64,000 bases of DNA from Staphylococcus sp. Its GTDB lineage: Bacteria > Bacteroidota > Bacteroidia > Bacteroidales > Muribaculaceae. The stretch covers positions 2,240,021 through 2,304,020 of the forward strand of contig JAMPDC010000001.1 in the NCBI GenBank assembly GCA_023665865.1, read 5' to 3'. The notes below the pieces were generated by a model. It had not been told where the DNA came from. It worked only from the letters and a program-made list of their open reading frames with translations, and ran no database searches. The translations under genes and the position numbers were made by a program. This document shows, piece after piece, positions 9,054 to 52,469 of the stretch (positions are counted from its first letter, which is position 1; each line of letters starts with the position of its first letter).

Positions 9054-9062
9054 GTCAGGATC

Positions 9063-11182: not shown

Positions 11183-11240
11183 GCGCTAAGCCCATATCAG
11201 TCCTGTCTGGCTTATGTCAAATTAAACAATATTCAGGGAA

Positions 11241-12899
11241 TTAATGTTTGTCGTCGACAATGGAGCAACCGGCACAGCGGTTTGAGATTTCGGTAAAGAA
11301 ATCATTGCCCTTGTCATCAACGAGGATGAATGCAGGGAAGTCCTCGACTTCGATTTTCCAGATTGCTTCCATGCCAAGCTCAGGATATTCGAGAAGTTCA
11401 ACTTTCTTGATGCTGTTCTGGGCGAGGATAGCTGCGGGGCCGCCGATCGATCCGAGATAGAAACCGCCATGCTTCTTGCAAGCATCAGTGACCTGCTTGC
11501 TGCGGTTGCCTTTTGCAATCATCACCATTGAGCCGCCTGCGCTCTGGAATTGATCGACATATGAGTCCATACGTCCTGCTGTTGTCGGGCCAAATGAGCC
11601 TGAAGGCATACCGGCAGGTGTTTTAGCAGGACCTGCATAGTAGATGGGATGATCCTTGAGATACTGAGGCATAGGCTCGCCGTTGTCAAGACGTTCCTTG
11701 ATCTTCGCATGTGCTATGTCGCGGCCGACGATAATAGTGCCGTTGAGTGAGAGACGTGTTGCAACGGGGTATTTAGTAAGTTCTGCGAGAATCTCAGGCA
11801 TCGGGCGGTTAAGATCAATCTTGACTGCATTTCCTTCTCCCTGCTTGCGATATTCTTCAGGGATGAGTTCTCCAGGGTTGCTGTCGAGTTTCTCGATCCA
11901 GAGGCCTTCACGGTTAATCTTTGCTTTGATGTTGCGGTCAGCGGAACATGAAACGCCGAGACCTACCGGACACGAAGCTCCGTGACGGGGGAGACGGATG
12001 ACACGGATATCGTGAGCGAAATATTTGCCGCCAAACTGTGCACCAAGGCCGAGACGTTCAGCCTCCTTCTTGAGAATAGCCTCAAGTTCTTTATCGCGGA
12101 AAGCGTGACCGAGTTCGTTGCCATGATCTGGAAGGTTGTCGTAATATTTCACAGAAGCCTTCTTGACTGTCTCAAGATTCTTTTCGGCAGAAGTGCCGCC
12201 GATCACAAAGGCGATGTGGTAGGGAGGGCAGGCAGCGGTGCCGAGGCTCTTCATCTTTTCGACAAGGAAGGGGACAAGGGTCTTGGGATTGAGGATAGCT
12301 TTGGTCTCCTGATAGAGATAAGTCTTGTTGGCAGAGCCACCGCCCTTGGCTACGAAAAGGAATTTATATTCGTCACCCTCGCCGGCATGAATATCAATCT
12401 GAGCCGGAAGATTGCAACCTGTGTTGACTTCATCATACATGGTAAGCGGTGCATTCTGCGAATAGCGGAGGTTGTCTGTAGTATAAGTCAGATATACGCC
12501 CTTGCTGATTTTTTCTTCATCATCGCAACCGGTGTAGACGTTCTGGCCTTTCTCTCCATGCACGATAGCTGTGCCGGTATCCTGGCAGAAAGGAAGCGCC
12601 CCTTTGGCAGCAACCTCTGCATTGCGCAGCATGGTGAGGGCTACAAACTTGTCGTTTTCAGAAGCCTCAGGGTCTGAAAGAATCTTAGCCACCATTTCAT
12701 TGTGCTCACGGCGGAGCATGAAAGCATTGTCGTGGGTGCATGCGCGGGCAAGAACTGTCAGAGCCTCCGGATCCACGACAAGGAACTCATGGCCGCCCCA
12801 GTTCTCGACTTTAACATAGTCAGATGTGAGTTTGTAATATTCAGTAGTATCAGGGCCGAGAGGGAACATCGGCTGATATTTAAACGGTTTGGTTGCCAT
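11241..12899 (-). CDS. fumA: Fumarate hydratase, class I (iron-sulfur)
   Basis: The 552-residue enzyme converts fumarate and malate in the TCA cycle and in fumarate respiration. It is a fused alpha/beta class I fumarase with a [4Fe-4S] cluster. The likely cluster cysteines lie in [10 protein letters not shown] (about 103), ACPPYH (about 223) and GVSCSADRN (about 317). The C-terminal beta domain includes [13 protein letters not shown]. The oxygen-sensitive cluster fits an anaerobic life style. A single gene with its own promoter at 12,944-12,974. Confidence 0.93.
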
Positions 12900-12943
12900 T
12901 TTAATAAAATTTGATGATTTACACTTGGAATTTCTTTGGATGA

Positions 12944-12974
12944 CAAATTTACAAACTTAATTTTAAAAAGCAAG
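12944..12974 (-). promoter_or_regulatory. Promoter for fumarase
   Basis: On the minus strand CTTG (12,971-12,974) is followed by 19 bases and TAAATTTG (12,944-12,951). This matches the Bacteroidota promoter pattern, with a leader of about 40 bases to the ATG at 12,899. Confidence 0.55.
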
Positions 12975-13022
12975 CGAATTCATGCCGCTATTTTTTCATT
13001 TGCGATTGTCATAACAGGGCGT

Positions 13023-15494
13023 TTATTTAAGATTGACTACCGTGATGCCGGCTCCGCCAAACCTCACGTCTTCGTCATGAAACGATTCAACACCCGGAGT
13101 CGTCGACAGAAGTTGTCTGACGGCCTGTCGCAGTGCTCCAGTACCTGTCCCGTGGAGGATTCTTACACGGGCGATGCAGAAACGGATGGCATCATCTATG
13201 AAATATGTCACTGTCTGAATCGCTTCGTCAGCCCTCATGCCGCGCAGGTCTATCTCCTGTTTAAAGTTAAGCTGCCGTTCATAGCCGGAGTCTATTGTCT
13301 GCATCGAAACAGTAGATTTAGCTGTGGTCTTAGGCTGCGCATCAGTGACCGTAAGTCGCTCGGCTTTTACGGTAGTTTTCAAATTTCCGAAGGCTACCAC
13401 GGCGTTCTTACCGGATATTTCCAGGACAGTACCAATCGTCCCACCGCCATCAAGCTTGACATTGACACCGGGCTCGATTTGTCTCGTGGTTTTGACTACT
13501 GACTGCGCGCTGTCAGTCATCGCAGGTGAATTGCGCTTCTTGCTTTTTGGAACCTTTGTCAACAGAGCGTTGGTCTCACGATGATGCCGGGCCTCCTTTT
13601 CAAGAGCAAGGCGTTCCTCTTTCAGCTTTCTACGGGCTTCGAGAGTGCGTTCACGCTCGGCATTGGCTTGCTTGATGTCTGCGATAGTGCGTTCGATAAC
13701 CGCATTTGACGAATCAAGTATTTTCCGCGCCTCCGTGCGGGCCTCTTCAATGATGTCGCGTCGTTTACTTTTGAGCTGTTCGGCATCCTCTGCATATTGA
13801 GCCAGCATCTGTTCGAGTTTCTTCTCTTTTTGTCGGATTGCCGTACGCTTGTTTTCCCAATATCGTTTATCGCGGGTGATGTCAAGGAGATAGTTGTCAA
13901 GATTTACATACTCCTTGCCGACAATCTCCTCGGCCGCTGAAATAATCTCAGCAGGCAGACCAATTTTTCTTGCAATCTCAACCGCAAACGATGAGCCGGG
14001 ATTGCCTATTGACAGTTTAAACATCGGCTGCATCAGATGACGGTCATAAAGCATAGAGCCATTGATCAGTCCGGGAGTATCTTCAGCAAACTGTTTCAGT
14101 ATCTGATAGTGGGTGGTGACGATGCCCCACATTTCTTTGACGTTCATCTGCTCGAGAATCGCACGTGCAAGAGCTCCACCTATCTGCGGTTCTGTACCTG
14201 AGCCCATTTCATCAATCAGAAACAGTGACCCTCTTCGTCCGCGCTGCAGCATGAACTTCATGCTGCGGAGGTGGCTGCTGTAGGTTGAGAGATCATCTTC
14301 AAACGATTGATCATCGCCTATGTCGACAAAAATATCTTTGAAGATACCAAAATGGGAATTGTCGTAGACCGGAGGGAGTATACCGCATTGTAGCATGTAT
14401 TGGAGTGTCCCCACGGTTTTAAGACAGACCGACTTGCCACCGGCATTCGGTCCGGAAATGACAAGGATGCGTTTGTTGCGGTCAAGTTTGATATCAATCG
14501 GCACAATCTCGCGGTGTTGCCTCTCAAGAGACAGTTTCAATACCGGATGGCAAGCGTGATACCATTCCATCTCCTCATTCTGATGGAGATGCGGCATCAT
14601 TCCACCTACGGCATCTGCATAGAGCGCTTTCGCGTTGATAAAGTCAAGATGATAGATAATATTGGCGCAGGTAAGCATCTCACCGATGTGAGGGCGCAGT
14701 TCGTCAGCTATCGATGTGAGGATACGAATGATCTCACGGTGTTCTTCAAGCTGCAGTTCCCTCGTCAAGTTGTTGGCTTCAACTACCTCAGCCGGTTCAA
14801 TGAATAGAGTTTTTCCGGATGCGGATTCATCATGTACTATGCCTTGAATCTTACGCTTATTCATAGGCGGTACGGGAATGACAAGTCGGCCGTCGCGGAC
14901 TGCAGGTGTAGTGTCCGGCTCAAGCCATCCCTGAGAGATTGCAGAGCTGAGCACTTTGCGGAGGATGGAGTTGACACGCCCCGACATGCCACGCAACCTC
15001 GACCTGATATCGGCAAGGGCGGGGGAGGCATTATCCTTCACAAGTCCGGTGGAAATATCGACAGCCCTGTCAATCATCATGCCGAGTGTCGGCGGAAGAA
15101 TAGACAATTCCTCAGATATATCTGTCAGCACCGGGTAGATTGTGCGACCGTCGCTCTTATGACGATGGAAAAATGATGCGACCGCACCGAAACAATCAAG
15201 CATGCGCCTGACTTTGATCAGCTCTTTGATCTCAAGGAAAGTGCCGGGAATTTTTATGACCGCAAGATTATGGTCGATGTCATTGACCCCTTCAAGGGGC
15301 AATGTCTCGTCGCTATGATTTGCGCTGACCATCTCGGTGACTGCTCTTAATGCCGCATCAACGGCTTTAAACTCAGCTACAAACGACATTTCGCGGCAAT
15401 AGTTGCGCGCGCTGTCACAATGGCATCTCGACATGATCTCCGCACGCACAGCGGTAAACCCTATTTTATCTTCTATTTTTTCAGGATAAATCAT
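13023..15494 (-). CDS. mutS2: MutS2 family ATPase/endonuclease
   Basis: The 823-residue protein has MutS core and clamp regions, then an ABC-type ATPase with Walker A GPNAGGKS (about 350) and Walker B region LFLIDEMGSGTEP. A long charged coiled coil follows (about 525-640). The C-terminal Smr domain begins DLRGMRADEAI and ends with RILHGTGTGALR, the Smr nuclease signature. It lacks the mismatch-recognition domain of MutS. MutS2 acts on branched DNA or on collided ribosomes, depending on the species. A TAAATTTG box ends only five bases before the ATG. Confidence 0.93.
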   Translation of the reverse strand: MIYPEKIEDKIGFTAVRAEIMSRCHCDSARNYCREMSFVAEFKAVDAALRAVTEMVSANHSDETLPLEGVNDIDHNLAVIKIPGTFLEIKELIKVRRMLDCFGAVASFFHRHKSDGRTIYPVLTDISEELSILPPTLGMMIDRAVDISTGLVKDNASPALADIRSRLRGMSGRVNSILRKVLSSAISQGWLEPDTTPAVRDGRLVIPVPPMNKRKIQGIVHDESASGKTLFIEPAEVVEANNLTRELQLEEHREIIRILTSIADELRPHIGEMLTCANIIYHLDFINAKALYADAVGGMMPHLHQNEEMEWYHACHPVLKLSLERQHREIVPIDIKLDRNKRILVISGPNAGGKSVCLKTVGTLQYMLQCGILPPVYDNSHFGIFKDIFVDIGDDQSFEDDLSTYSSHLRSMKFMLQRGRRGSLFLIDEMGSGTEPQIGGALARAILEQMNVKEMWGIVTTHYQILKQFAEDTPGLINGSMLYDRHLMQPMFKLSIGNPGSSFAVEIARKIGLPAEIISAAEEIVGKEYVNLDNYLLDITRDKRYWENKRTAIRQKEKKLEQMLAQYAEDAEQLKSKRRDIIEEARTEARKILDSSNAVIERTIADIKQANAERERTLEARRKLKEERLALEKEARHHRETNALLTKVPKSKKRNSPAMTDSAQSVVKTTRQIEPGVNVKLDGGGTIGTVLEISGKNAVVAFGNLKTTVKAERLTVTDAQPKTTAKSTVSMQTIDSGYERQLNFKQEIDLRGMRADEAIQTVTYFIDDAIRFCIARVRILHGTGTGALRQAVRQLLSTTPGVESFHDEDVRFGGAGITVVNLK

Positions 15495-38430: not shown

Positions 38431-39840
38431 ATGGCAAGAAAAAAGAAAGATCTACCGTTGCTCAACGGTGTTGAAATACTCGACGTCGCAGCTGAAGGCA
38501 ATTCAATAGCCCGCGTCGATGACATGGTTGTTTTCATTCCGTTTGGCGCTCCGGGCGACATCGCGGATGTCAAGATCGACCGCAAGAAAAAGAGTTATGC
38601 CGAAGGTCACATCGAAAAACTCACAACTCCTTCGCCGATCCGCGTGACTCCGCGCTGCGAACACTTCACACTTTGTGGAGGTTGCCGTTGGCAGCATCTG
38701 CCTTACGAATTTCAGTTGAAGTGCAAACGCCAGCAAGTCGTCGACGCTCTCGAGCGCATTGCAAAAATCCCACATCCCGAAGTGATGCCCATTCTTGGCT
38801 CGGAGAATATCTGGGAATACCGCAATAAGATGGAATATACTTTTTCCAATAAAAAATGGCTTACATTTGACCAACTTAGGTCGGGAGAGGAATTCCCTGA
38901 GCGTCGTGCTGCCGGATTTCATATTTCTGGCGCTTTCGATAAGGTCCTTGACATCAACCGTTGCCATCTTCAAGATGATCTTGGTAATCGCCTCAGATTG
39001 TTTATCAAACAGTTTGGCATGGATCATAACTACTCATTCTATGATCTACGTGGACAGAATGGTTTCCTCCGTACCCTGATGATCCGTATCGCATCCACAG
39101 GCGAGGTGATGGCTGTTATGGTGTTTGGCGAAGACGACAGGGAGAAAATCGACACGTTGCTCACCGCTGTCGCAACAGAATTTCCGGAAATAACGTCTCT
39201 TCTATATGTCGTAAACACAAAGGTCAACGATACTATCGCCGATCAGGATATACATCTGTTCAAAGGACGTGAATATATAGAAGAGGATATGGAAGGATTG
39301 AAATTCCGTATCGGTCCCAAATCATTCTACCAGACCAATTCCCGTCAGGCCTATCGTCTGTATAGCGTGGCGCGTGACTTCGCCAAACTCAATGGCGATG
39401 AGCTTGTCTATGACCTATATACCGGAACCGGCACAATCGCATGCTTTATAGCGCGTCAGGTACGCCACGTGATTGGTATCGAATATGTCCCTGAAGCCAT
39501 TGAAGATGCAAAAATCAATGCAGCTGCCAACAATCTTGAAAATACAGAGTTCTATGCCGGTGATATGAAAAATGTCCTCACAACAGAATTCATCCAGCGT
39601 CACGGACATCCGGATGTGATGATAGTCGATCCTCCCAGAGCGGGTATGCACGAAGATGTCGTTAACGTCATTCTGTCCGCAGCCCCCAAGCGCATAGTCT
39701 ATGTGAGCTGTAACCCCGCGACACAGGCACGCGATCTGGCGCTTCTGCATGAAAAATATGACATCGAAGCAGTCTGCCCGGTCGATATGTTCCCGCATAC
39801 GCAGCACGTCGAAAACGTTGTGGCACTGACACGTAGGTAA
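38431..39840 (+). CDS. rlmD: 23S rRNA (uracil-C5)-methyltransferase RlmD-type
   Basis: The 469-residue enzyme has an N-terminal TRAM domain (about 1-60). The iron-sulfur cysteine cluster is CEHFTLCGGCRWQHL (about 76-90) with a fourth cysteine in LKCKRQQV. The C-terminal SAM domain has LVYDLYTGTGTIACFIA, the motif IVDPPRAGM, and the catalytic cysteine region VYVSCNPATQARDL. It methylates a uridine in 23S rRNA; the RlmD versus RlmCD identity is not certain. Confidence 0.9.
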   Translation: MARKKKDLPLLNGVEILDVAAEGNSIARVDDMVVFIPFGAPGDIADVKIDRKKKSYAEGHIEKLTTPSPIRVTPRCEHFTLCGGCRWQHLPYEFQLKCKRQQVVDALERIAKIPHPEVMPILGSENIWEYRNKMEYTFSNKKWLTFDQLRSGEEFPERRAAGFHISGAFDKVLDINRCHLQDDLGNRLRLFIKQFGMDHNYSFYDLRGQNGFLRTLMIRIASTGEVMAVMVFGEDDREKIDTLLTAVATEFPEITSLLYVVNTKVNDTIADQDIHLFKGREYIEEDMEGLKFRIGPKSFYQTNSRQAYRLYSVARDFAKLNGDELVYDLYTGTGTIACFIARQVRHVIGIEYVPEAIEDAKINAAANNLENTEFYAGDMKNVLTTEFIQRHGHPDVMIVDPPRAGMHEDVVNVILSAAPKRIVYVSCNPATQARDLALLHEKYDIEAVCPVDMFPHTQHVENVVALTRR

Positions 39841-40695: not shown

Positions 40696-40723
40696 TTTTC
40701 TCATAATCACGATTATATTTAGA
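40696..40723 (+). other. attL: attL: dif-like site at the left provirus end
   Basis: The left arm TTTTCTCATAA, spacer TCACGA and right arm TTATATTTAGA follow the 11-6-11 layout of XerC/XerD sites. The central 15 bases CATAATCACGATTAT (40,702-40,716) recur exactly at attR. The left arm should be chromosomal and the right arm phage-derived. Confidence 0.8.
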
Positions 40724-40746
40724 AAATATAGTTAAAAAAAACAAAA

Positions 40747-42201
40747 TTACTGCATATCTTTTTGAGTATTCAAACAAAATTTTAAAGATTTTTGGTACAA
40801 AACAGTATAGCGATCGGAAGCGGGAGGCAAATCATCCTCATGTTTTTTCACTCGAGCAATAAACCGTCGGGAGACGCGGTCCCGGACAGAAATCTGAGTA
40901 AGAACCCAAGGAATATCAACACTGAAATTAGAAAGGATCTCACAATTCCGAACAAGACGAGTATAAAGTTTCTCAAAATCAAAATCAACGGAAACTCTCT
41001 CAAATTGTTTTTTCCAATACTCATCTGAGCCATAATAGAAACCTAAAAGTTGATCAAAAGGAGAGACAATTTTCAAGCAATCAGAAATAACATAATCAGA
41101 ATTTTTAAAAAGTTCAGGAAGAATATCAAAACGAGAGCTGGAGTTGGAGAGAAGAAATTCGTTTGCAGAATCAGTAATACGGGAAATAAGACCGGAAAAA
41201 ATACATTTATTATCTCTTAGACAATCAAGCAAACAAAGATCTTTACGAGATTGTATATAAGCCTCACGAATCTCACGTGAAATATATTTGCGGAGAGGAG
41301 GAAGAATCTTATCACGGACATAAGCAGGGAGAGTAACTGTATAAGTCCTATCATCGACCGGAATAGTGATAGTAGGAAAGTGAGGCGTATGACATAACTC
41401 TAAAAAACGATCAGATTCAAGAATCTTAGAACCTAAACCACCATCACGACGAGAAGCAGTCCAAAAATTAGGATTTTTCTTAGGTTTTTTAATAAACTCA
41501 TCAAATCCAGGGTCACAAGGGAGCAAATCAATATCAGAAAAAGCATCCTTACCAACATATTTAGAGACATACTGAAAAGCACGAGAATGAATAATATCAT
41601 AACGGACAAAACCTTTGCCCCAGGCCTTTTCAAGAACATTAAAAAACTCCATACGATCATCATAAGTATCTTTAAGATCCAAACCAAACAAAACACCATG
41701 ATAGTGAGCACGACCATTTTTATGACCATATTCAGAGAAGAATACATGACGAAAATAAGTAGAACGGCCGGCACGACCAAGATACAAATGAAGGCGATTT
41801 AAAAAACGCTTGACATCGGTTTTAGATACACCATCGGAAGGAAGATGTTCATTATTGTAGGTAAGAGTAACAAAGATAGGGGGAACCTCATGCGACATCT
41901 GCTCCAAGTACATACGCACACGGATAGCAGAGCGCTTAGACTCTATACATTCTAAGCACTTACCACATGGAACAGCCATAAAGATAGGCACACAAGTGCC
42001 ATCATCATCTACTGCATAAAAATCGGATATAGTAGAATTATCAAGCCAAAGAGAGCTAAAAGGAGGTAAATTAACAGGATAATAGTAGCTATCACCAAGG
42101 GGATTTTGATTAATAACGGTATTTTGAAGGTGGATTTCTCTGAACTCATGACGATGTTGAGAATAATTAGGATTAAGAATTATATTGGGTTGTAAACACA
42201 T
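40747..42201 (-). CDS. Microvirus replication initiator VP4 (HUH endonuclease)
   Basis: The 484-residue protein begins rolling-circle replication by nicking the virion strand. It shows a cysteine pair in PCGKCLECIESKR (about 78-90), motif I region FVTLTYNNEHLP, the HUH-type metal motif RAHYHGVLFG (His156, His158) and the twin-tyrosine motif YVSKYVGK (Tyr201, Tyr205). These are the marks of the phiX174 gene A/gokushovirus VP4 group. The gene is last in the phage transcript and ends 24 bases from attL. A TAAATTTG box lies immediately before the ATG and might give extra expression. Size and motifs suggest it is functional. Confidence 0.93.
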   Translation of the reverse strand: MCLQPNIILNPNYSQHRHEFREIHLQNTVINQNPLGDSYYYPVNLPPFSSLWLDNSTISDFYAVDDDGTCVPIFMAVPCGKCLECIESKRSAIRVRMYLEQMSHEVPPIFVTLTYNNEHLPSDGVSKTDVKRFLNRLHLYLGRAGRSTYFRHVFFSEYGHKNGRAHYHGVLFGLDLKDTYDDRMEFFNVLEKAWGKGFVRYDIIHSRAFQYVSKYVGKDAFSDIDLLPCDPGFDEFIKKPKKNPNFWTASRRDGGLGSKILESDRFLELCHTPHFPTITIPVDDRTYTVTLPAYVRDKILPPLRKYISREIREAYIQSRKDLCLLDCLRDNKCIFSGLISRITDSANEFLLSNSSSRFDILPELFKNSDYVISDCLKIVSPFDQLLGFYYGSDEYWKKQFERVSVDFDFEKLYTRLVRNCEILSNFSVDIPWVLTQISVRDRVSRRFIARVKKHEDDLPPASDRYTVLYQKSLKFCLNTQKDMQ

Positions 42202-42251
42202 GCAAATTTAAAAAATTTTATTCAAACAAGGAGTAAATTCTATCCGCCAAG

Positions 42252-42266
42252 TGACACGGTGTGTCA
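42252..42266. repeat. Small palindrome upstream of the replication gene
   Basis: TGACAC and GTGTCA flank GGT in the only sizeable gap between VP2 and VP4. With the hairpin at 42,296-42,318 it makes this gap the best non-coding candidate for a replication or packaging signal, but that is speculation. Confidence 0.5.
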
Positions 42267-42295
42267 TTGGCTATGTTAATGTCGAGCAATAGAAG

Positions 42296-42318
42296 AGCAA
42301 GGGCATTTCGCCCTTGCT
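42296..42318 (-). terminator. Hairpin between VP2 and VP4
   Basis: AGCAAGGGC pairs perfectly with GCCCTTGCT around a 5-base loop, four bases after the VP2 stop. There is only a weak T-run (CTCTTCTATTG) on the minus strand. It may reduce read-through into VP4, or act as a structural element in the ssDNA genome. Confidence 0.55.
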
Positions 42319-42322
42319 AACC

Positions 42323-43453
42323 CTATCTACCGAAACCCTTGACACGAACAGGTCCAGGAGCAGCAGCTTTACGAACACTAAGACAAGAGCCAACAGCTTC
42401 GCCAAGTCCATGAATTAAATCCGAGGCAATGCCGGAGCGCCACATCCATTCACGAAAAGTAGTACCAGTACCGAAAGAATCATCAGAAAAAATTTCCAAA
42501 TCAAGTTGAGAAACATCACCCTGAATATTAAGCAAACGATTTAAAGGATTTTTCTCATCTTTTTCCCATTCAAGACCAGCAGATGCTAAAAGATAATTTT
42601 TATAAGCCTGCTCAACTTGCGCATAAGAAACAGAAATACGCGCTTTAGACTCATTAACACGCTGAACAACTTCAGCGATCTGAGCTTTCATCATAGAAGA
42701 CTTAAAAGCACGTTCAATCTCATTAAGAAAACGCTGAGAATCATTCAACATACCCTGAGAACGAAGTTCGTCAATTTGAGCTTCCAATAAATCCATTTCA
42801 TGAACAACTTTTTCAGCTTGACGATAAGCAATACGAGTCTCAGCATCAGTAAGTTTTATATTAGAAAGACCAAGACGAACGCTAACAGAACCAAGATTAA
42901 TTTCATTAGTCAAAAGAGACTGTTGAAAAGTATTATAAGTAAGAACCGTATCAGTATCGGCCTCAGTCTTTTTAGTCTGAGCCTTGATAGCTTGAGTCTC
43001 TGCATTAGTACGAGCAATCTCAGCAGCACGGAGAGACAAATCAGAAAGACCCTGAGGAGAAGCAGGAGCAGAAGGAGACGAAGCCATAGAACCGGAAGGA
43101 GCAGAAGCAGCAGCTCCGGACATAGAACCACCATACATAAGAGAGGGATTCAATCCGGCAGCGACATAACGCTTAACTTGTTCCTGAGGAGAATTGTAAG
43201 CATTAGTCTCATCAAACATTTGCTTCTGAAAATCACGATTAAGTTGAGCCTCATTGTGTGCAAAATCCTGCTGACGCTTCAACATCTCATATTGAGCACG
43301 AAGAGAAGCATTAGCATCAGACTGAGCACCAAAAGAACCGACAAGACCATCAATACCTTTAGAAAGATATTGACCAACGCCGGGAATCATAGAGGCGCCG
43401 AAACTTGCGACGCCTCCAAGACCTTTAAAAACAGATTTTAAAAAATTACCCAT
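42323..43453 (-). CDS. Microvirus DNA pilot protein VP2
   Basis: The 376-residue protein starts at the ATG at 43,453 (MGNFLKSVFKGLGGVASFGA), two bases after the VP3 stop. The frame is open further upstream, but there it overlaps VP3. A glycine-rich N-terminus with an amphipathic helix is followed by NRDFQKQMFDETNAYNSP and VKRYVAAGLNPSLMYGG, the hallmark of VP2 minor spike/pilot proteins. An Ala/Ser/Pro-rich linker and long coiled coils (about 200-320) come next. VP2 is thought to form the conduit for DNA entry. The large antisense frame on the plus strand has shadow composition and is not a gene. Confidence 0.92.
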   Translation of the reverse strand: MGNFLKSVFKGLGGVASFGASMIPGVGQYLSKGIDGLVGSFGAQSDANASLRAQYEMLKRQQDFAHNEAQLNRDFQKQMFDETNAYNSPQEQVKRYVAAGLNPSLMYGGSMSGAAASAPSGSMASSPSAPASPQGLSDLSLRAAEIARTNAETQAIKAQTKKTEADTDTVLTYNTFQQSLLTNEINLGSVSVRLGLSNIKLTDAETRIAYRQAEKVVHEMDLLEAQIDELRSQGMLNDSQRFLNEIERAFKSSMMKAQIAEVVQRVNESKARISVSYAQVEQAYKNYLLASAGLEWEKDEKNPLNRLLNIQGDVSQLDLEIFSDDSFGTGTTFREWMWRSGIASDLIHGLGEAVGSCLSVRKAAAPGPVRVKGFGR

Positions 43454-43454
43454 A

Positions 43455-43757
43455 TCAATCGTAAGCTTGTTTATCCAACTTATGAGCAGCGACAATACGT
43501 TTACGAGCCGTTTTCTGAGCTTCCCAAACAGCATTGACATCAATACCACGTCTATCCTCAATAGGAATATCAAACGAGGGATTAGTGGTACCATCAAAGA
43601 ATGTTTCAGACATCTGAGCTGTGATCGGGATTCCCTTCTCAGCCATACGAGCCATTTGAGAGGGAGAAACAGAAAGACCAGGAGTAACTTTTTCAAAAGC
43701 ATCATCTACTATATGAGCAGACCGGGCATGCTTACTTTGACGAATTCGTGAAAACAT
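43455..43757 (-). CDS. Microvirus internal scaffolding protein VP3
   Basis: The 100-residue, charged, largely helical protein has GLSVSPSQMARMAEKGIPI and AVWEAQKTARKRIVAAHKLD. Size, charge and position between capsid and pilot genes fit the microvirus internal scaffolding protein (VP3, equivalent to phiX174 B). It guides procapsid assembly and is later lost. The stop codon lies just before the VP2 start. Confidence 0.82.
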   Translation of the reverse strand: MFSRIRQSKHARSAHIVDDAFEKVTPGLSVSPSQMARMAEKGIPITAQMSETFFDGTTNPSFDIPIEDRRGIDVNAVWEAQKTARKRIVAAHKLDKQAYD

Positions 43758-43769
43758 AATATTAAAATT

Positions 43770-43853
43770 TTAAGAGGTATTCGCTACGCTCATGATTAAA
43801 TTAAGAGGAGAGAGGAGAATGAGTAATTGTTTGAATCTCCGGAGAACAAACAT
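43770..43853 (-). CDS. Possible 27-residue hydrophobic peptide
   Basis: An ATG at 43,853 opens 27 codons in the VP1-VP3 gap, starting MFVLRRFKQLLILLSPLN. An exact AAGGAG lies at ideal distance upstream, unusual for this genome. The product is a basic start followed by a short hydrophobic helix. phiX174-like phages encode small DNA-binding (J) or lysis (E) peptides in similar places, but I see no homology. It may be chance. Confidence 0.3.
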   Translation of the reverse strand: MFVLRRFKQLLILLSPLNLIMSVANTS

Positions 43854-43871
43854 TAGCTCCTTCTTTTGTTT

Positions 43872-45938
43872 TTATTCAAGGCGGGGAACACCAAAGCGAG
43901 GAATCGGGCGTTTAGCCTTAATATCAAAATAAACTTGACCGAGAATAACGTCAACCGGCTCACCTTCAACCTCAGAAACGGTAAATACATCATTCAACTG
44001 AGCAGGATCAACAACAGTAAACGAAGGACCAAGAACGGGGAGATTTTGGAATACACGATTCATGACAAAATTACGGAGAGTAGTGCGGAATTGACCATGA
44101 ACTTCATCAACTGACTGCAAGTAGTCATACCAAGCACGTTGATAACCAAAAGTACCTGAACGAGTAGAAGAGGTACATTGAAGAGGCGAAACCTCCTCAT
44201 TAGAGATAGCCTGCAAACCAAGGTGCCCAAACTCGGGAGAATAGTAATCAAGCGAGTCAGAGTATTTAAGGAAGTGTTTAGGAAGTAGCTGTGAATAATT
44301 AGGCACCGGGACAACAGACATAACAATCATGACAAAACCATGCTCATCAAAATATTTATTAATAGAATGTTTCGACGAACCTGAAGCATAAAGCTGACCA
44401 GCGTAAGAGCCAAGAGGATTGTCAGAGGTATCCGCAGAAGTCTGAGAAATAGTCTGAGGAGTGACATCAATAGAAACACCGCCGATAAACTCAGGCATAT
44501 CTAACTCTTGATAAGAAATGTCGACATCAAAATGAGACTTAATCATGTCGCGGTACTTAAAGCCTCGACGAATGTTAGTCTCGAGCCATCGTTGGTAAGC
44601 ATTGACATTACGGAAATCATTAATAGAAATACCGGAAGAGGCATAATTAACGAGAGAACGGGTGACAGCTTTAGGGAGAGTCTCAGTAACATCATAACCA
44701 ATGATAGTATCGGCATCACCGGCGGTCTTAGCCTGAACTTGATAATTTTGGCCAGAATCAGGATCCTGAATAGTCATGACACCAGTAGCAGAAATACCGA
44801 CAAGAGGAGCAGTTCCTTGTTGAGGAGTAGGAACGGCAGTAGTCAAGAAATCTTGCTCCCAATTTCGATAATGGATTTGATAAGGAGAATTATCGGCACC
44901 GCCTTCAGTAGTAAAGGTATAGCGATTATATTCCTTCTCGCCATCGAGGACAAACGGGTTATTGCGTTCATCACGATAGAACGAGTTGTAAATCGACTCA
45001 TAAGCACGGAAAGGAAGAGCGGAAATAGGAGTCTGATCCTTATAAATATCCGTAGGCAAATCAGGATAATCCAAATAAAGATAATTTTCAGAAGAATATG
45101 ACATAGAAGTCAAAGCCAACTGAATAGATTCATTTGTACGAAGCGGGAAAACAAGGACACAATACGTAGATCTATAAATACCATCAGGGACAATATAGTC
45201 TACAGTATAAACAATATCCTGGCCAGAATCATCAACAGAAACAGAACCTTTAATATCAACCAAAACAAGATCATCCGAATTACAAAGAAGAAGAGTAGGA
45301 GGATCTGAAACATCATATTGTCCTCGATAAACAAAACGAAGAATGTCACCACCATTAAAAGCAGTAACGCCGTATTCACACTGAAGAACGGGCGAATAAT
45401 CATTACCAGAAGGAGTAACAAAACCAGGAACTAAAGGAGTAGAACCCAAACCGCCATTAGCGACAGCATAATCTAAAGGGATACGAGAAGTATCAAGATA
45501 GTATTGCTTAAAACCACCGCTAAATTTAGCACTAATACCGGTAAAACTCTCACCAAAACCATAAATGACAGAAGGCACACCTAAATAATCCGCAAGACCG
45601 CCAGTCTTAAAAAAGGATTTAGGCTGAGACAAAGTAGGAGGGACCAAATTAGATTTAGTCTTACCAAACCAATCAGGCCAATCTTTCCACAAATTACGAT
45701 TTCTTACATAAAAAGCATGAAAATCACACCTCATACGAGTCTGCAAAGGGAAAGCAGTAGGCATAAAACGAAGTCCAGCAGTAATATCTATATTAAAAGA
45801 ATCAGCGGGAATGACTTCTTTACACATGACTGGAATAAGGGCACCAAACCGAGCTGTAATATTATTCTGAAAGCTCAAATCAAAAGTATTACGAGGCACA
45901 GAATTAACCGGACCTCCATTTTTTCCAAAAGGATTCAT
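43872..45938 (-). CDS. Microvirus major capsid protein VP1
   Basis: The 688-residue capsid protein starts at the ATG at 45,938 (MNPFGKNGGPVNSVPRNTFD). The frame opens two codons earlier with TTG. Typical VP1 features are NNITARFGALIPVMCKEVIPADSF near the N-terminus (first part at about 26-40), LQTRMRCDFHAFYVRNR and the C-terminal KRPIPRFGVPRLE. The length is at the long end for the family, fitting the large surface loops of Alpavirinae-like viruses. The frame is intact. Confidence 0.93.
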   Translation of the reverse strand: MNPFGKNGGPVNSVPRNTFDLSFQNNITARFGALIPVMCKEVIPADSFNIDITAGLRFMPTAFPLQTRMRCDFHAFYVRNRNLWKDWPDWFGKTKSNLVPPTLSQPKSFFKTGGLADYLGVPSVIYGFGESFTGISAKFSGGFKQYYLDTSRIPLDYAVANGGLGSTPLVPGFVTPSGNDYSPVLQCEYGVTAFNGGDILRFVYRGQYDVSDPPTLLLCNSDDLVLVDIKGSVSVDDSGQDIVYTVDYIVPDGIYRSTYCVLVFPLRTNESIQLALTSMSYSSENYLYLDYPDLPTDIYKDQTPISALPFRAYESIYNSFYRDERNNPFVLDGEKEYNRYTFTTEGGADNSPYQIHYRNWEQDFLTTAVPTPQQGTAPLVGISATGVMTIQDPDSGQNYQVQAKTAGDADTIIGYDVTETLPKAVTRSLVNYASSGISINDFRNVNAYQRWLETNIRRGFKYRDMIKSHFDVDISYQELDMPEFIGGVSIDVTPQTISQTSADTSDNPLGSYAGQLYASGSSKHSINKYFDEHGFVMIVMSVVPVPNYSQLLPKHFLKYSDSLDYYSPEFGHLGLQAISNEEVSPLQCTSSTRSGTFGYQRAWYDYLQSVDEVHGQFRTTLRNFVMNRVFQNLPVLGPSFTVVDPAQLNDVFTVSEVEGEPVDVILGQVYFDIKAKRPIPRFGVPRLE

Positions 45939-45990
45939 AATCAATCTTTTTTAGATAATAAAATAGCAACTTTTAATAATAAAGTTAAAA

Positions 45991-46080
45991 TTAAATAGAA
46001 GCAGCGCCAAGGCAACCGAGAAAAGCGGAAGCGACAGCTATAATTACTTCTAAAACTTTTTTGATAACATTTTTCGTCAT
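45991..46080 (-). CDS. 'Smalltalk'-like membrane peptide (29 residues)
   Basis: An ATG at 46,080 overlaps the TGA of the M15 peptidase gene in an ATGA junction and opens 29 codons, ending TAA at 45,993-45,991. The peptide has a basic start (MTKNVIKKVLE) and one membrane helix (VIIAVASAFLGCLGAASI). This layout, with a charged head, a hydrophobic helix and a small-residue C-terminus, resembles the 'smalltalk' peptides found next to lysis enzymes in Bacteroidetes phages. A holin-like or spanin-like role is plausible but unproven. The coupling to the peptidase gene argues that it is real. Confidence 0.6.
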   Translation of the reverse strand: MTKNVIKKVLEVIIAVASAFLGCLGAASI

Positions 46081-46580
46081 AAGGCAACATGTATAAAAGT
46101 ATTATAATCAAGCAATTCAACATGAGGCAAAGCACTGAGAATATTATATAATTCATTATGCTTACCGAAAGGAGCAACTATATCAGCAGCACGACCATAC
46201 AAATGGTAACTGTTAGACGCACCACCAACAAGACGATTGAGAGCCTGAGAACGATAACCGGAGGTAACAATTATAGGGCCACCAATCTTTAAACGAGCAG
46301 GCTCAAGAACTTTAGAACAAAGATTTAGTAAGTTGTTGTAAATATTCTGATTAGGCGAAAGAGTCAGATTATTTTTAACAGCAGTAGGAGAAGCCAAGAA
46401 CTCATCAAGATTAAAATGATCTGTAAGACAGTTAGGCTTAGAATCGGAAAGGGATTCAAGGACATTAATAACTTCATCAAAAACAGAAGACGAGTCAGAA
46501 CTATAAGGATTAGTTATAGCAGAATTAAGAAGCGTTATACAACGACGTAACGCAAAACGTTCAGTATTAGTCAAGCTCAT
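46077..46580 (-). CDS. M15-family murein peptidase (putative endolysin)
   Basis: The 167-residue protein carries the zinc DD-peptidase pattern of Peptidase_M15_3. It has IVTSGYRSQALNRLVGG (about 104-120), then YHLYGRAADIVAP with zinc ligands His126 and Asp133, and the third ligand His164 in TFIHVAL at the very C-terminus. The N-terminal 90 residues are helical and unassigned. There is no signal peptide. Peptidoglycan cleavage at release or entry is the natural role. It begins inside the end of the 75-residue gene (14-base overlap) and is followed by the smalltalk-like peptide. Confidence 0.85.
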   Translation of the reverse strand: MSLTNTERFALRRCITLLNSAITNPYSSDSSSVFDEVINVLESLSDSKPNCLTDHFNLDEFLASPTAVKNNLTLSPNQNIYNNLLNLCSKVLEPARLKIGGPIIVTSGYRSQALNRLVGGASNSYHLYGRAADIVAPFGKHNELYNILSALPHVELLDYNTFIHVAL

Positions 46581-46794
46581 TGCGACGCAAAATTAAATCC
46601 GCTTTAAGGTTATAGGCAGCACCTATCGCACGGAGACGGTTAGAAATTGATGAAGAAGTAAGAGCACATGAATAATCGTTAATCAAACGAAGCTGAGAAG
46701 CAATAAAAGCATCCAAGTTACGTTGAAAACGATAAGGATTAGCACAAAAACACTCATGAAGAGTGCGAGGGGGATTAGACTTATTTTTTGCCAT
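46567..46794 (-). CDS. Hypothetical phage protein (75 residues)
   Basis: This is the first gene of the phage transcript. The 75-residue product is basic and helical (LDAFIASQLRLINDY and RLRAIGAAYNLKADLILRR) with two cysteines near residue 16. I do not recognise it. It lies about 25 bases downstream of the promoter at attR and overlaps the peptidase gene by 14 bases, which argues for a real gene expressed with it. Confidence 0.6.
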   Translation of the reverse strand: MAKNKSNPPRTLHECFCANPYRFQRNLDAFIASQLRLINDYSCALTSSSISNRLRAIGAAYNLKADLILRRNELD

Positions 46795-46819
46795 AAAACA
46801 TAAAATTAAAGTTACAGCG

Positions 46820-46851
46820 CAAAATTAGCCCATAATCACGATTATGTTAAA
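46820..46851 (-). promoter_or_regulatory. Phage promoter straddling attR
   Basis: On the minus strand TAATTTTG (46,820-46,827) is a perfect -7 element inside the phage. The base block 20 bases upstream is TTTA (46,848-46,851) in the chromosomal arm of attR. In the excised circle the same position would read CTAA. The spacing and the 20-25 base leader to the first phage gene support it. Confidence 0.5.
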
Positions 46852-46852
46852 T
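46825..46852 (+). other. attR: attR: dif-like site at the right provirus end
   Basis: The left arm is TTAGCCCATAA and the spacer TCACGA. The right arm TTATGTTAAAT is identical to the XerD arm of E. coli dif. The right arm should be the chromosomal half and the left arm phage-derived. Joining the attL left arm to this right arm rebuilds a standard 28-bp dif, so this is probably the host dif locus near the replication terminus. Confidence 0.8.
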
Positions 46853-47066
46853 AGCCTCTCGAGCTTGTTCTATAGACTCTCCTAAAATTGGTATTTTCAT
46901 TCTTCCCTCTTCCCACATCCCTTTGGTGTGCTTGACACCAAACACAAATTCTATGATATTTATACATAATTCCAAACGCTGATGAAAATATGCGAATCTC
47001 AATGGGTTTATAATCGAGATTATTTTTCAATTTGCAGGAGTCGCACTTCTCCGTGGTCATACACAC
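46842..47066 (-). CDS. Possible 74-residue zinc-ribbon-like protein
   Basis: A GTG-started frame 13 bases after topB encodes a 74-residue basic product with two cysteine pairs (EKCDSCKLK and RICVWCQAHQ), which could bind zinc. Its stop codon is formed inside the XerD arm of attR. No known family is recognised. The distance from topB suits an operon, but the weak start and the end inside dif leave it doubtful. Confidence 0.3.
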   Translation of the reverse strand: MCMTTEKCDSCKLKNNLDYKPIEIRIFSSAFGIMYKYHRICVWCQAHQRDVGRGKNENTNFRRVYRTSSRGYLT

Positions 47067-47079: not shown

Positions 47080-49134
47080 CTATTTTTTACTTAACTGTTT
47101 CTTGAGCTTAGCCGGTGTCAGGGATTCAGGATATTCTGTAAAATTCAAGCGTAAGGTACATCCTTCCCTGAAGCGGCTACAACCAAACGCTGTTCTGCCC
47201 TTCAGTATATGCCCCTGCTTACACAACGGACACTCTACCTGCTCAAATTTTGTGGTTCTCGGAGCGCGAGGTTTGGTGGGACCTTGCGGCTTCACAAGTG
47301 AGCCGTTAGCATCACCGGATTTTTTCGGAGCGGAGTCTCCAACAAAAATCTTAGCATGCGAATTGTCGCTCAAGACATTTATAACAATCTGATTTATAAG
47401 TATTTTAAGCTCTTGGATAAACTCCGAGGCCGAATACTCTCCACGTTCAATACGGCGCAACTTATTCTCCCACAGGCCGGTAAGCTTTGCACTCTTCAAC
47501 AACTCCTCATTAATCGAAGCAATAAGGTCGATACCGGCTTGCGATGCCATGATTGACTTGCGGTTACGATAGATATACTTCCGTTTAAATAAAGTCTCGA
47601 TAATAGCCGCACGTGTTGAAGGTCTGCCGATGCCATTCTCCTTCATTGCCTCTCTAAGTTCTTCGTCTTCAACCGTTTTACCGGCCGATTCCATTGCTCG
47701 CAAGAGAGTACCCTCGGTATAATATTTTGGAGGCTGAGTAGTACGTTTCTGCAATGATGGCTCATGGGGGCCTGACTCCCCTACTACAAAGTCCGGCAAA
47801 ATACGGTCATCAGCATTGTCGTCGGCCGGCTGTTGAACTTCATCATTATTGCTATCATACAATTTTCTCCAACCTGCATCCTCGATGACCTTACCAGTGG
47901 CTTTGAAAGCCGTCTTGCCGACTTCGCCAATCACAGTGGTGCTCATGAATATACAATCCGGATAAAACGCTGCGATAAACCGAAGGGCGATTAAATGGTA
48001 GAGCTTTCGCTCGTTGCCTATAAGTACAGAAGGTGATTGTCCCGTCGGAATAATCGCATGGTGATCCGTCACCTTAGAGTTGTCAAACACCTTCTTGCTC
48101 TTCGGGAGTTTTGACCCGAGCAAAGGCGATGTCAGAGCAGCGTATGGTGTCATATTCTGAAAAATACCCGGCACTTTCGCATAGATATCCTCCGATAGAT
48201 ATGTCGTGTCGACACGCGGATATGTCGTCACCTTTTTCTCATAAAGCGATTGGATGAGCCGCAGCGTCTCATCTGCCGTCCATCCCCACTTTTTATTACA
48301 TTCTACCTGAAGACTCGTCAAGTCAAACAATCTTGGAGGTGCCTCGCGTCCCTTTTTCTTTTGGACATCCTTGATCACCATTGGCAAAGGACGTATCTCA
48401 TTAAGAATCGCATCGGCTTCTTCCGGCGATTTAAATCGTCCGGCCGTGGCATTGAACACAGCCCCACGATAGGTCGTCTTGAGTTCCCAGTAATCCTCAG
48501 GCTTGAAATTTTCGATCTCAAAATGGCGCTGCACAATCAAAGCCAGTGTCGGAGTCTGCACACGCCCTATTGACAGCACGTTGCCGGGCGAGGAATATTT
48601 CAGAGAATAGAGTCTTGTGGCATTCATCCCGAGGATCCAATCGCCGATGGCCCGTGACAAACCTGCATGATACAGATTGTCGAATTGAGATTCCGGCTGG
48701 AGGTGAGCAAAACCTTCACGTATCGACTCGTCGGTCAGCGAAGAAATCCACAGACGCTTCACCGGACAATGGATCGAAGCCTTCTGCATGACCCATCGCT
48801 GGATCAGCTCTCCTTCCTGGCCCGCGTCGCCGCAGTTGATGACCTCGTCAGCCTCGGCTATAAGATTCTCAATCACTCGAAACTGTCGCTCGATACCTTT
48901 GTCAGGTATCACCTTGATTCCAAAACGTACGGGAAGCATGGGCAACACACCGAGAGACCACCGTTTCCATCGCTCTTCATAGTCTCCGGGTTCTTTTAAA
49001 GTACAGAGATGGCCGAAGGTCCAGGTAACTTTATAGTCCCCACCCTCGTAATATCCGTCCCGGCGATCATTGGCGCCAAGGATCTGTGCAATATCTTTAG
49101 CTACACTCGGTTTCTCGGTAATGCAGAGCTTCAT
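47080..49134 (-). CDS. topB: DNA topoisomerase III
   Basis: The 684-residue type IA topoisomerase has the Toprim opening LCITEKPSVAKDIAQILGA and NCGDAGQEGELIQRW with the acidic metal site. The ILSIGRVQTPTLALIVQRH... core follows (here VLSIGRVQTPTLALIV), then the catalytic tyrosine region TTYPRVDTTYLSEDIY. The C-terminal zinc-finger-like tail has CPLCKQGHIL and FGCSRFREGC. It decatenates DNA and resolves recombination intermediates. Similar genes occur on Bacteroidales conjugative elements, but no such element is seen here. The ATG overlaps the stop of the upstream small exported protein. Confidence 0.93.
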   Translation of the reverse strand: MKLCITEKPSVAKDIAQILGANDRRDGYYEGGDYKVTWTFGHLCTLKEPGDYEERWKRWSLGVLPMLPVRFGIKVIPDKGIERQFRVIENLIAEADEVINCGDAGQEGELIQRWVMQKASIHCPVKRLWISSLTDESIREGFAHLQPESQFDNLYHAGLSRAIGDWILGMNATRLYSLKYSSPGNVLSIGRVQTPTLALIVQRHFEIENFKPEDYWELKTTYRGAVFNATAGRFKSPEEADAILNEIRPLPMVIKDVQKKKGREAPPRLFDLTSLQVECNKKWGWTADETLRLIQSLYEKKVTTYPRVDTTYLSEDIYAKVPGIFQNMTPYAALTSPLLGSKLPKSKKVFDNSKVTDHHAIIPTGQSPSVLIGNERKLYHLIALRFIAAFYPDCIFMSTTVIGEVGKTAFKATGKVIEDAGWRKLYDSNNDEVQQPADDNADDRILPDFVVGESGPHEPSLQKRTTQPPKYYTEGTLLRAMESAGKTVEDEELREAMKENGIGRPSTRAAIIETLFKRKYIYRNRKSIMASQAGIDLIASINEELLKSAKLTGLWENKLRRIERGEYSASEFIQELKILINQIVINVLSDNSHAKIFVGDSAPKKSGDANGSLVKPQGPTKPRAPRTTKFEQVECPLCKQGHILKGRTAFGCSRFREGCTLRLNFTEYPESLTPAKLKKQLSKK

Positions 49135-50186: not shown

Positions 50187-52469
50187 TCAGAACGGATAAC
50201 CGATTGCAAGATGGAAAGCAAGAGACTTCTTGAACGACTCCATGTTGTAATATCCTCTCTTCCCTGTCTCATACGGAGCATGGATGCCGATACCGAGATC
50301 TCCGCGTATGACGAGCATTGAGAGATCAAATCTGAGGCCTACTCCGGTCCCGAGAGCAAGATCCTTGAAAAACGATGAGGCTTTCAGCTGTCCGCCCGGA
50401 CGAGATGGTTCGTCTTTAAGCGTCCATACATTACCGGCATCAAGGAACACCGCACCGTGAAGCGGGCCAAGAATCGGGAATCTATATTCAGCGTTGGCTA
50501 TAAACGTAAACGTACCCGTCTGATCGAAATATCCGTTGACCTGGTCAGCCGGAGCCCGGTATGATCCGGGGCCGATCGAGCGGACTGTGAACGCTCTGAC
50601 CGAGTTTGCACCGCCACAATAGAACTGCTCGCTGTATGGCACCTGCGAAGAGTTGCCGTAAGCATAAGCGGCGCCACTACCCAGACGGCTGACAAACCAA
50701 TGATTGCCAAACAGACGGCGTCCGTAGACAATCTGGGCATAACCTTTGACAAACTGGGAGAATGGAGTCTTGAACAGTGTCTTCTCCCCTTTCTTCCCAC
50801 AGAGTTCATAGATGCCCCAGAAGATATTGCCTGCTTCCTGAAGAGTAAACTGCACATTGATCGTATTGTCTCTGTTCATCGCGCGGTCATATACGAAGCT
50901 ATAGGAAATCTGCGGGATATACTGGCTCTGGAAACTCAAAGCGATCGCAGGATTTGCATTCATGATCGAGTCAAACACCTCTGTGGTATGCTGGAGTTTG
51001 TTGTATGTGAGTTTGAAGAGCGTCAGTGTATTCGAGATATACTTTGACGACTGCCAGTCGTAAGAAATGCCAGCATTGAACTGACTGAGTTTAAAATAGT
51101 GGGGGCGATTGAGCACATCCACGCCGAGCGACAGACGGGTCCAGTTGACCTCTCTGCGTGTGCGGGGGATGAAACGAGGGGCGAGAAGACGCGGGAAGGC
51201 AAGAGTTGCGTTGAGCCCGACTTCATACGAATTGAAAACCGAGCTCTTTTTCCCGGCACCGGTCTGCCACTCGTATGCACCCGTGAGCGAGAGTGTGAGC
51301 AGTTCACCGCCTCCGAAAAGGTTGCGGTTTGTGAGGCCAAGTGATATACCGGGGCCGAGATACGAGTTGGATTTCGAGGATACATTGGCTTCAATCGAGG
51401 CCTCCAACGGACGGTCGTAGGTACATTGTATTGTCACATTAAGCAGATTGTCGTTTTTATTGACGGTATCTCTTTCGACATCAATATTGATATTGTTGAA
51501 AATACCGAGACGCGACAGTCTTGTCTGCGTCATATTCATCTGCCGCACCGAGAATGTGCGTCCTTCTCTGAACGAAATACAAGAAGGGATGAGATTCTCG
51601 CGTAAACGGCCGGGCAGATAGCGGATGAGAGTGCCCTTGCGGGTTTCAGTAGTGTCAGGAGTGCCACCGCCACGGTTACGATAGATATATGTCGTGATAT
51701 TACCTGTGCGGTAACGCGCAAGCGCTGTCGCCGGGATATTATCGGCAAGATCCAGTTTGATGGCTATGCTGCCACGGTTGATGGTACTGTCGGCAAGATA
51801 CTGCACATATTCCGGTCTGAAAAAATAATATCCACGGTTGCGCACAGCATTGGCGATATCGACACGAAGCACCGACAGTGAATCGCTCGAATATCTTGAT
51901 CCCTTCTGGAAGTATTTCGACCGCTTCGCTACGGAATCTATCAGATGATACAGATGCACCGAATCAGGGAGCAAAATGATAGAGTCGAGCAGATACGGGC
52001 GTCCAGCCTCAACCTTATAGCGTATGGAAGCCTTCTTCTTGTTTTTTTTCTGCACAAGTTCATAGGAGGTCGTGCCGCTGAAGTAACCATTGTTGTCGAG
52101 AATCTGATCGAGCATATGGATTCTCACCTCCGGACGCACATCGCTCACCAACACCGGCTGAGCCACGAGTTTATTGTAGATCCAATGCTTGAACCCTTTT
52201 GGAGGATTAGGCCAGTTGTTGTAGACCCATAGACCTAAGGGAAACGGATAGCGGACGGAGGCCGATCCAAGCAGGGCATTGTTTGGCTTGACCGAAACTG
52301 CTTCCGTCAACGACGATCGGACTCCGGCCGGAAATTTCTCATTGTCGGGAGTGGTCACCTCCACTCCTTTCAATCCTGTATATAGAATCTCATCCTGTCC
52401 GATCCTGCGCGTCGTCGAGCAGCTTGCAAGCGAGAGGCAGACCGTCAGATATACCAGCAGTTTTTTCAT
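50187..52469 (-). CDS. tamL: TamL lipoprotein: TamA-like Omp85 barrel
   Basis: The 760-residue outer-membrane protein begins with a lipoprotein signal (LSLASCS, lipid cysteine at about 17). POTRA-type repeats follow (to about 340, e.g. VEAGRPYLLDSIILLPDS). A 16-strand Omp85 barrel has the loop-6 motif NSVRAFTVRSIGPGSYRAP and a terminal strand ending in Phe. Bacteroidota carry this lipoprotein version of TamA, called TamL, paired with TamB. It helps insert or transport envelope material across the periplasm. tamB lies directly upstream on the same strand with a 46-base gap. Confidence 0.9.
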   Translation of the reverse strand: MKKLLVYLTVCLSLASCSTTRRIGQDEILYTGLKGVEVTTPDNEKFPAGVRSSLTEAVSVKPNNALLGSASVRYPFPLGLWVYNNWPNPPKGFKHWIYNKLVAQPVLVSDVRPEVRIHMLDQILDNNGYFSGTTSYELVQKKNKKKASIRYKVEAGRPYLLDSIILLPDSVHLYHLIDSVAKRSKYFQKGSRYSSDSLSVLRVDIANAVRNRGYYFFRPEYVQYLADSTINRGSIAIKLDLADNIPATALARYRTGNITTYIYRNRGGGTPDTTETRKGTLIRYLPGRLRENLIPSCISFREGRTFSVRQMNMTQTRLSRLGIFNNINIDVERDTVNKNDNLLNVTIQCTYDRPLEASIEANVSSKSNSYLGPGISLGLTNRNLFGGGELLTLSLTGAYEWQTGAGKKSSVFNSYEVGLNATLAFPRLLAPRFIPRTRREVNWTRLSLGVDVLNRPHYFKLSQFNAGISYDWQSSKYISNTLTLFKLTYNKLQHTTEVFDSIMNANPAIALSFQSQYIPQISYSFVYDRAMNRDNTINVQFTLQEAGNIFWGIYELCGKKGEKTLFKTPFSQFVKGYAQIVYGRRLFGNHWFVSRLGSGAAYAYGNSSQVPYSEQFYCGGANSVRAFTVRSIGPGSYRAPADQVNGYFDQTGTFTFIANAEYRFPILGPLHGAVFLDAGNVWTLKDEPSRPGGQLKASSFFKDLALGTGVGLRFDLSMLVIRGDLGIGIHAPYETGKRGYYNMESFKKSLAFHLAIGYPF

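What the first reader, a model, noticed from the sequence alone, without database searches (positions are those of the whole stretch)
40702..46845. Apparently intact integrated microvirus (temperate ssDNA phage)
A full set of microvirus genes (VP1, VP2, VP3, VP4) plus extra ORFs lies in one 6,129-bp unit. The ends are exact 15-bp repeats and all main frames are open. Microviruses are usually lytic, and integrated forms are known only from a few groups such as Bacteroidetes. The intact genes and sharp ends suggest a recent or still-active lysogen. The T-rich coding strand fits a packaged virion strand.
Basis: partly seen in the sequence, partly recalled or inferred. Interest (0 to 1): 0.9.

Follow-up and report, generated by a model that had tools for sequence, protein, structure and literature searches.

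The report
Dif-integrated temperate microvirus in a Bacteroidota
A complete-looking small single-stranded-DNA phage sits in the chromosome of a gut-type bacterium, apparently inserted by the bacterium's own chromosome-separation enzymes; this lifestyle is already known, but the case links phages seen only in rodent droppings to a likely host.

Summary
Window 40702-46830 is one 6,129-bp microvirus unit with seven open genes on the minus strand. Its two ends share the 15-bp core of the host's 28-bp Xer site, dif. Joining only the two host flanks gives a dif site, and dif lies empty between the same two genes (RlmD-like and TopB) in three provirus-free congeners (G005, G008, G021). A second congener (G020) carries a diverged provirus with the same gene set at dif next to TopB. 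The five closest free circular relatives (rodent-feces records) all have a dif-like attP where the circular form predicts it, between the Rep stop and the next gene; two share 18 exact bases with attR. No integrase is encoded; the host has XerC/XerD-like genes.

It is therefore a Xer-dependent temperate-type microvirus like the BMV proviruses of Krupovic and Forterre (2011): a new member of a known kind. 'Intact' holds at gene level. 'Recent' and 'still active' are not shown: the nearest free relative has only 67% identical VP1. Extras: an unannotated 29-aa 'smalltalk' ORF overlapping the M15 peptidase, a probable host genus for the free relatives, and varied dif centres in that genus, some shared with phage attP sites.

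The parts
38431..39840 (+). Host flank: RNA uracil-5-methyltransferase (RlmD-like)
   Evidence: PF05958
40696..40723 (+). attL: host XerC arm TTTTCTCATAA, centre TCACGA, phage XerD-side arm TTATATTTAGA (4 of 11 differ from host arm)
40747..42201 (-). VP4, rolling-circle replication initiator (484 aa); HYH and YVSKYVGK motifs kept in 7 of 7 aligned sequences
   Evidence: PF23343, phrog_942
42323..43453 (-). VP2, DNA pilot protein (376 aa from ATG at 43453)
   Evidence: phrog_8689 and others
43455..43757 (-). 100-aa ORF in the VP3-like position; no detectable scaffold homology
43872..45938 (-). VP1, major capsid protein (688 aa from ATG)
   Evidence: PF02305, phrog_514
45991..46080 (-). 29-aa smalltalk-family ORF overlapping the peptidase stop by 4 bases
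   Evidence: NF033879 27.9 bits, cut-off 24.7
46077..46580 (-). M15_3 peptidase (167 aa), putative endolysin
   Evidence: PF08291, phrog_894
46567..46794 (-). 75-aa ORF of unknown function
46825..46852 (+). attR: phage XerC arm TTAGCCCATAA, centre TCACGA, host consensus XerD arm TTATGTTAAAT
47080..49134 (-). Host flank: DNA topoisomerase (TopB-like)
   Evidence: PF01131

Best explanation
A temperate-type microvirus resembling the BMV/Alpavirinae proviruses, in a Bacteroidota chromosome. The circular double-stranded form carries one dif-like site (attP) just past the Rep stop. Host XerC/XerD pair it with the chromosomal dif, whose six-base centre is the same (TCACGA), and exchange strands at the borders of the centre. 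The 6,129-bp genome is left between two hybrid sites; attR keeps the consensus XerD arm and probably still serves the host as dif. Excision is the reverse reaction; the freed circle would replicate by rolling circle through VP4, be packaged in VP1 and VP2, and lyse the cell with the M15 peptidase, perhaps aided by the smalltalk peptide. Shown: gene content, att anatomy, empty site in congeners, attP in free relatives, recurrence at dif. Inferred: Xer catalysis, double-stranded substrate, excision, infectivity, lysis roles.
For: Empty dif between the same genes in G005, G008 and G021. Second provirus at dif in the genus and a third, different one at dif in the family. attP at the predicted place in 5 of 5 nearest free circular relatives, two identical to attR over 18 bases. 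No recombinase among the seven genes; two complete Xer-like genes in the host, 328.9 and 245.9 bits to the XerD model, both under its 329.6-bit cut-off. Site near a G-C skew change, roughly opposite the other change. Xer-dependent integration shown by experiment for gokushovirus EC6098 (PMC7062461, passages).
Against: No read-level evidence of excision or particles. The 15-bp repeat alone is weak. The skew profile is noisy. Only 3 of 397 family genomes carry a capsid gene. The exact 18-base site was not found in IMG/VR. Neither host Xer gene passes the XerD model cut-off.
Confidence: 0.82

Rival explanations
1. A fixed or decaying provirus: it entered through dif but can no longer excise or form virions.
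For: attL's XerD-side arm differs from the host arm at 4 of 11 bases, and no free form close to it was found: best phage-record match 73% DNA identity in the listed rows, none with the exact attP in IMG/VR.
Against: Seven open frames over 94% of the unit; catalytic motifs of Rep and peptidase kept; identical att cores. Free relatives' attP also lacks the consensus XerD arm, so that arm is not decay.
Confidence: 0.13
2. Integration by another recombinase or by homologous recombination, with dif involved by chance.
For: Five further, weaker tyrosine-recombinase-like matches exist in the genome.
Against: Four microvirus proviruses (window, G020, G056, L019) lie at dif or dif-like sites, and free relatives carry the matching site.
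Confidence: 0.03
3. Assembly artefact: a free phage circle joined into dif through the shared core.
For: The genome is an assembly in 4 contigs, 88.75% complete; read depth cannot be seen. The G020 provirus contig breaks 42 bases past its outer att site.
Against: The unit lies inside a 2.63-Mb contig with correctly hybrid att sites; the shared core is only 15 bases; other genomes show the same arrangement.
Confidence: 0.02

Closest known systems
BMV1-7 proviruses, proposed Alpavirinae (Krupovic and Forterre 2011, PMC3091885; passages seen)
   Same: 6-kb microvirus proviruses in Bacteroidales, VP1, a small ORF, VP2 and VP4 as a block, no recombinase, dif-like att sites, provirus-free relative showing the empty site.
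   Different: Hosts there are Bacteroides and Prevotella; the small ORF between VP1 and VP2 is about 150 codons there and 100 here; no peptidase is mentioned in that paper's text (term count 0).
Alpavirinae with M15_3 peptidase between VP4 and VP1 (Roux 2012, PMC3394797; passages seen)
   Same: Peptidase family and its place in the genome; long Rep.
   Different: Human gut and lung genomes; the overlapping smalltalk ORF is not described in the passages seen.
Enterogokushovirus EC6098 (Kirchberger and Ochman 2020, PMC7062461; passages seen)
   Same: dif motif carried by the phage; XerC/XerD required for lysogeny; phage-derived site differs from consensus in the XerD arm.
   Different: Gokushovirinae, 4.3-4.7 kb, in Escherichia; the VP1 tree separates them.
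VGJphi and TLCphi filamentous phages (review PMC4246890; passages seen)
   Same: Single dif-like attP integrated as double-stranded DNA by host Xer enzymes.
   Different: Filamentous phages. VGJphi lacks centre homology on the XerD side; here all six centre bases agree. TLCphi has a degenerate XerD arm, as here.

Membership tests
Microviridae | Major capsid protein of the Phage_F family, with pilot protein and rolling-circle Rep | tested here: met
   PF02305 248.7 bits (cut-off 25); pilot PHROGs; PF23343 61.6 bits (cut-off 27.8); VP1 profile also matches solved microvirus capsids
BMV/Alpavirinae | Provirus at dif-like sites in Bacteroidales without a recombinase | tested here: met
   dif sites and empty site; no recombinase in the seven genes. 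Host phylum from TamL; order level is inferred
BMV/Alpavirinae | Gene order VP1, small ORF, VP2, VP4 | tested here: met
BMV/Alpavirinae | VP1 phylogeny inside the Alpavirinae clade | not tested
   No labelled Alpavirinae sequence obtained; tree shows only a clade apart from Gokushovirinae and phiX174
Gokushovirinae | VP1 inside the Gokushovirinae clade | tested here: not met
   18-row clade with the window (97/96) apart from the four-row gokushovirus-side group (96/92), two of whose rows I placed there myself
Integrative element exploiting Xer (IMEX) | Element flanked by dif-type hybrid sites, attP in the free form | tested here: met
   attP seen in relatives, not in this phage itself
Integrative element exploiting Xer (IMEX) | Integration and excision depend on host XerC/XerD | not testable with these tools
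   needs deletion strains or purified enzymes

The most novel reading that the evidence does not exclude
The six-base dif centre is a host-range barcode under pressure from Xer-hijacking microviruses. In the host genus 21 of 27 genomes gave a site with an exact pattern, and their centres take 15 forms (two of the 21 are provirus-borne att sites, and the arms were fixed by the pattern). The attP sites after Rep in free relatives have four centre types; three equal a congener's dif centre (TCACGA in G005, TCACTA in G012, TCGCTA in G002), one (TGGCTA) does not. If strand exchange needs matching centres, a changed centre would block integration, and attP centres would name the hosts of uncultured microviruses. 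No chance expectation was computed.
Probability: 0.1. Interest if true: 0.7.

Novelty: new member of a known kind. Interest (0 to 1): 0.38.

Why it matters
It adds a well-delimited case, with an empty site, a sister provirus and attP-bearing free relatives, to the temperate-type microviruses of Bacteroidota. It gives a probable host genus and lifestyle to circular microviruses known only from rodent feces. A dif-like site at the end of Rep marks some sublineages of this capsid clade and is missing in others, so lysogenic capacity can be guessed from a free genome. The varied dif centres make a sequence-based host-prediction test possible.

Tried and rejected
Smalltalk ORF as a marker of temperate microviruses. 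Among the loci scanned the six free relatives with the peptide were the six with the site after Rep (L110 with one mismatch), but the dif-integrated G056 and L019 proviruses lack the peptide. An out-of-sample test on 8 of the 24 records that the peptide finds (many of the rest are near-copies or were already held) gave 0 of 8 with the exact core anywhere and none with it after Rep; two have a one-mismatch core inside Rep. In one of the 8 my ORF filter saw no peptide, and its Rep is not annotated. Rejected: the peptide is the more widespread trait. Peptide matches in the Dulem records are weak (E 0.09-0.3).

VP3 homology: none. Defence genes: 4 of the 7 proteins scanned, none matched.

Exact 18-base attP in IMG/VR: 0. 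VP1 in IMG/VR: 2 loci, then 6 with an alignment; none has a core with up to one mismatch.

Control for the barcode idea: a search of another family held only 2 genomes, so there is no proper control. Several single genomes of other families show TTTATA or TTAATA centres.

L114 has an exact core inside its peptidase gene and was not counted as attP after Rep.

Other elements beside dif in L053-L055: only ordinary-looking host ORFs seen.

Full report
Setting. The window is bases 2,240,021-2,304,020 of a 2,627,313-bp contig; the assembly has 2.69 Mb in 4 contigs and is 88.75% complete. A TamL gene at 50187-52469 (NF052279, 756.9 bits, cut-off 400) points to Bacteroidota (that the family is typical of this phylum is recall). 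Muribaculaceae would be my guess from the rodent-gut relatives, but that is recall, not a test.

The element. Between an RNA-methyltransferase gene (38431-39840) and a topoisomerase gene (47080-49134) lies a unit with 38.7% G+C, against 44.7-51.4% in the 2-kb steps outside 40-48 kb. Seven genes run on the minus strand: a 75-aa ORF, M15_3 peptidase, a 29-aa smalltalk ORF, VP1, a 100-aa ORF, VP2 and VP4. None has an internal stop, and they cover 94% of the unit. Rep keeps HYH and YVSKYVGK in 7 of 7 aligned sequences. The peptidase keeps the H, D and H that I recall as metal ligands in 7 of 7.

The ends. The 15-bp core is repeated 6,129 bp apart. Chance gave some repeated 15-mer in 13 of 200 shuffles, so the argument rests on what the core is. 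The outer, host sides of the two copies together read TTTTCTCATAA-TCACGA-TTATGTTAAAT, a 28-bp dif. A dif pattern with a free centre and up to two mismatches hit 76 of 101 genomes, this one once. I fetched the sites of 18 genus members and of two other genera. In 4 of these 20 loci both RlmD and TopB lie around dif (G005, G008, G012, G021); in 2 only RlmD (G002, G018); in 14 neither lies in the fetched stretch, so the neighbourhood is not conserved across the genus. VP1 and Rep were found in none of the 20. In G012 a 483-aa ORF separates RlmD from dif. G005 has the same centre, TCACGA. The joined host flanks align across the site, with further pieces in order on both sides, in G005, G008 and G021.

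Terminus. In 20-kb samples the G-C skew changes sign between 0.92 and 1.05 Mb and again near the window: +0.10 at 2.09 Mb, 0.00 at 2.20 Mb, +0.03, -0.02 and -0.05 through the window, -0.06 at 2.40 Mb. That puts the site roughly opposite the first change. Against this: weakly negative values at 1.57-1.96 Mb and +0.08 at 2.54 Mb.

Recurrence. A capsid search (PF02305) found 3 of 397 genomes of the host family and 1 of 393 of the order, this genome included in both. The three lie at dif. G020 (same genus) has the same gene set next to TopB, with dif on one side and an 88%-matching copy 42 bases before the contig end. G056 (another genus, a very different capsid, some masked bases in the flank) has 93%-matching 28-bp dif copies 6,065 bp apart. 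In a goat Bacteroidales MAG (L019; VP1 35% identical) a dif-like site precedes VP1; by eye another follows Rep with a spacer one base longer.

Free relatives. A DNA search of the phage records matched 157 records, none over 80% of the unit; the nearest are circular genomes from rodent feces. If the provirus formed by crossover at the core, their attP must lie between the Rep stop and the next gene. CATAAT-N4-ATTATG is there in 5 of 5, with at most 0.05 sites of up to one mismatch expected per genome in these five (20 shuffles each). Two carry CCCATAATCACGATTATG, as attR does. Of 27 loci scanned (25 relatives, phiX174, phiMH2K), L110 has the core with one mismatch right after Rep, L114 has an exact copy inside a gene (and a one-mismatch copy elsewhere), L108 a one-mismatch copy elsewhere, and 19 have none. 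Some of the 27 are contigs whose completeness is unproven.

Phylogeny. In a 27-row VP1 tree the window sits in an 18-row clade (97/96) apart from a four-row gokushovirus-side group (96/92; only two of the four are named Gokushovirinae in their records) and from phiX174. Its highest identity is 67% over 631 columns, to PQ006502. Several end branches are long. The eight attP rows form one side of a branch only if unlabelled rows are ignored: seven share a clade with one row without the site (L112; 99/97), and L110 pairs with L111, which lacks it. So the site was gained or lost more than once.

Mechanism. attL and attR share all six centre bases, and two free relatives' attP have the same centre, so exchange on both sides of the centre is possible. 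A review states that joining dif and attP strands needs complementary bases at the join (PMC4246890, passages). attR keeps the consensus XerD arm and a XerC arm ending CCCATAA, as in the dif of several congeners, so the lysogen probably keeps a working dif. The host has two complete Xer-like genes, both under the XerD model's cut-off, and five weaker matches. A related microvirus was shown by experiment to need XerC and XerD (PMC7062461, passages).

Lysis module. M15 peptidases between VP4 and VP1 are known in Alpavirinae and were proposed to act in lysis (PMC3394797, passages). The overlapping 29-aa ORF passes NCBIfam's smalltalk cut-off; it is the only such match in this genome, and of 99 family genomes only this one passes the cut-off. 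One paper of the library uses the phrase 'smalltalk protein', in the one passage shown, an expression table. A lysis-peptide role is a guess from size, charge and place.

Open points. Excision, particles and recency are untested. Alpavirinae membership by phylogeny is untested. Nine paper searches listed, by title and start of abstract, earlier Bacteroidetes and Escherichia microvirus proviruses; I saw in these listings none on the rodent-feces clade as a provirus or on dif centres as host markers. Preprints and most subscription papers are not held.

The arms' constancy in the dif survey follows from the search pattern and is no longer offered as a finding; the probability of the novel reading was lowered from 0.12 to 0.10 for that reason.

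Noticed in passing
window 45991-46080: A 29-aa ORF of the smalltalk family overlaps the M15 peptidase stop; similar unannotated or 'hypothetical' ORFs lie at the same place in related free microviruses.
   Followed up: partly
host genus dif sites: The six-base dif centre takes 15 forms in 21 genomes of one genus (arms fixed by the pattern).
   Followed up: partly
L098 4851-10943 (G056): A different microvirus provirus with M15 peptidase between 28-bp dif copies in another genus of the family.
   Followed up: partly
L019 about 7493-13620: A microvirus provirus with dif-like sites in a goat-cecum Bacteroidales MAG.
   Followed up: partly
L017, L018: Microvirus contigs of about 6.1 kb sit in MAG bins, one labelled Oscillospiraceae; perhaps mis-binned free phages.
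   Followed up: no
window 47010-47024: A two-mismatch copy of the att core on the minus strand lies in the host flank; probably chance.
   Followed up: no
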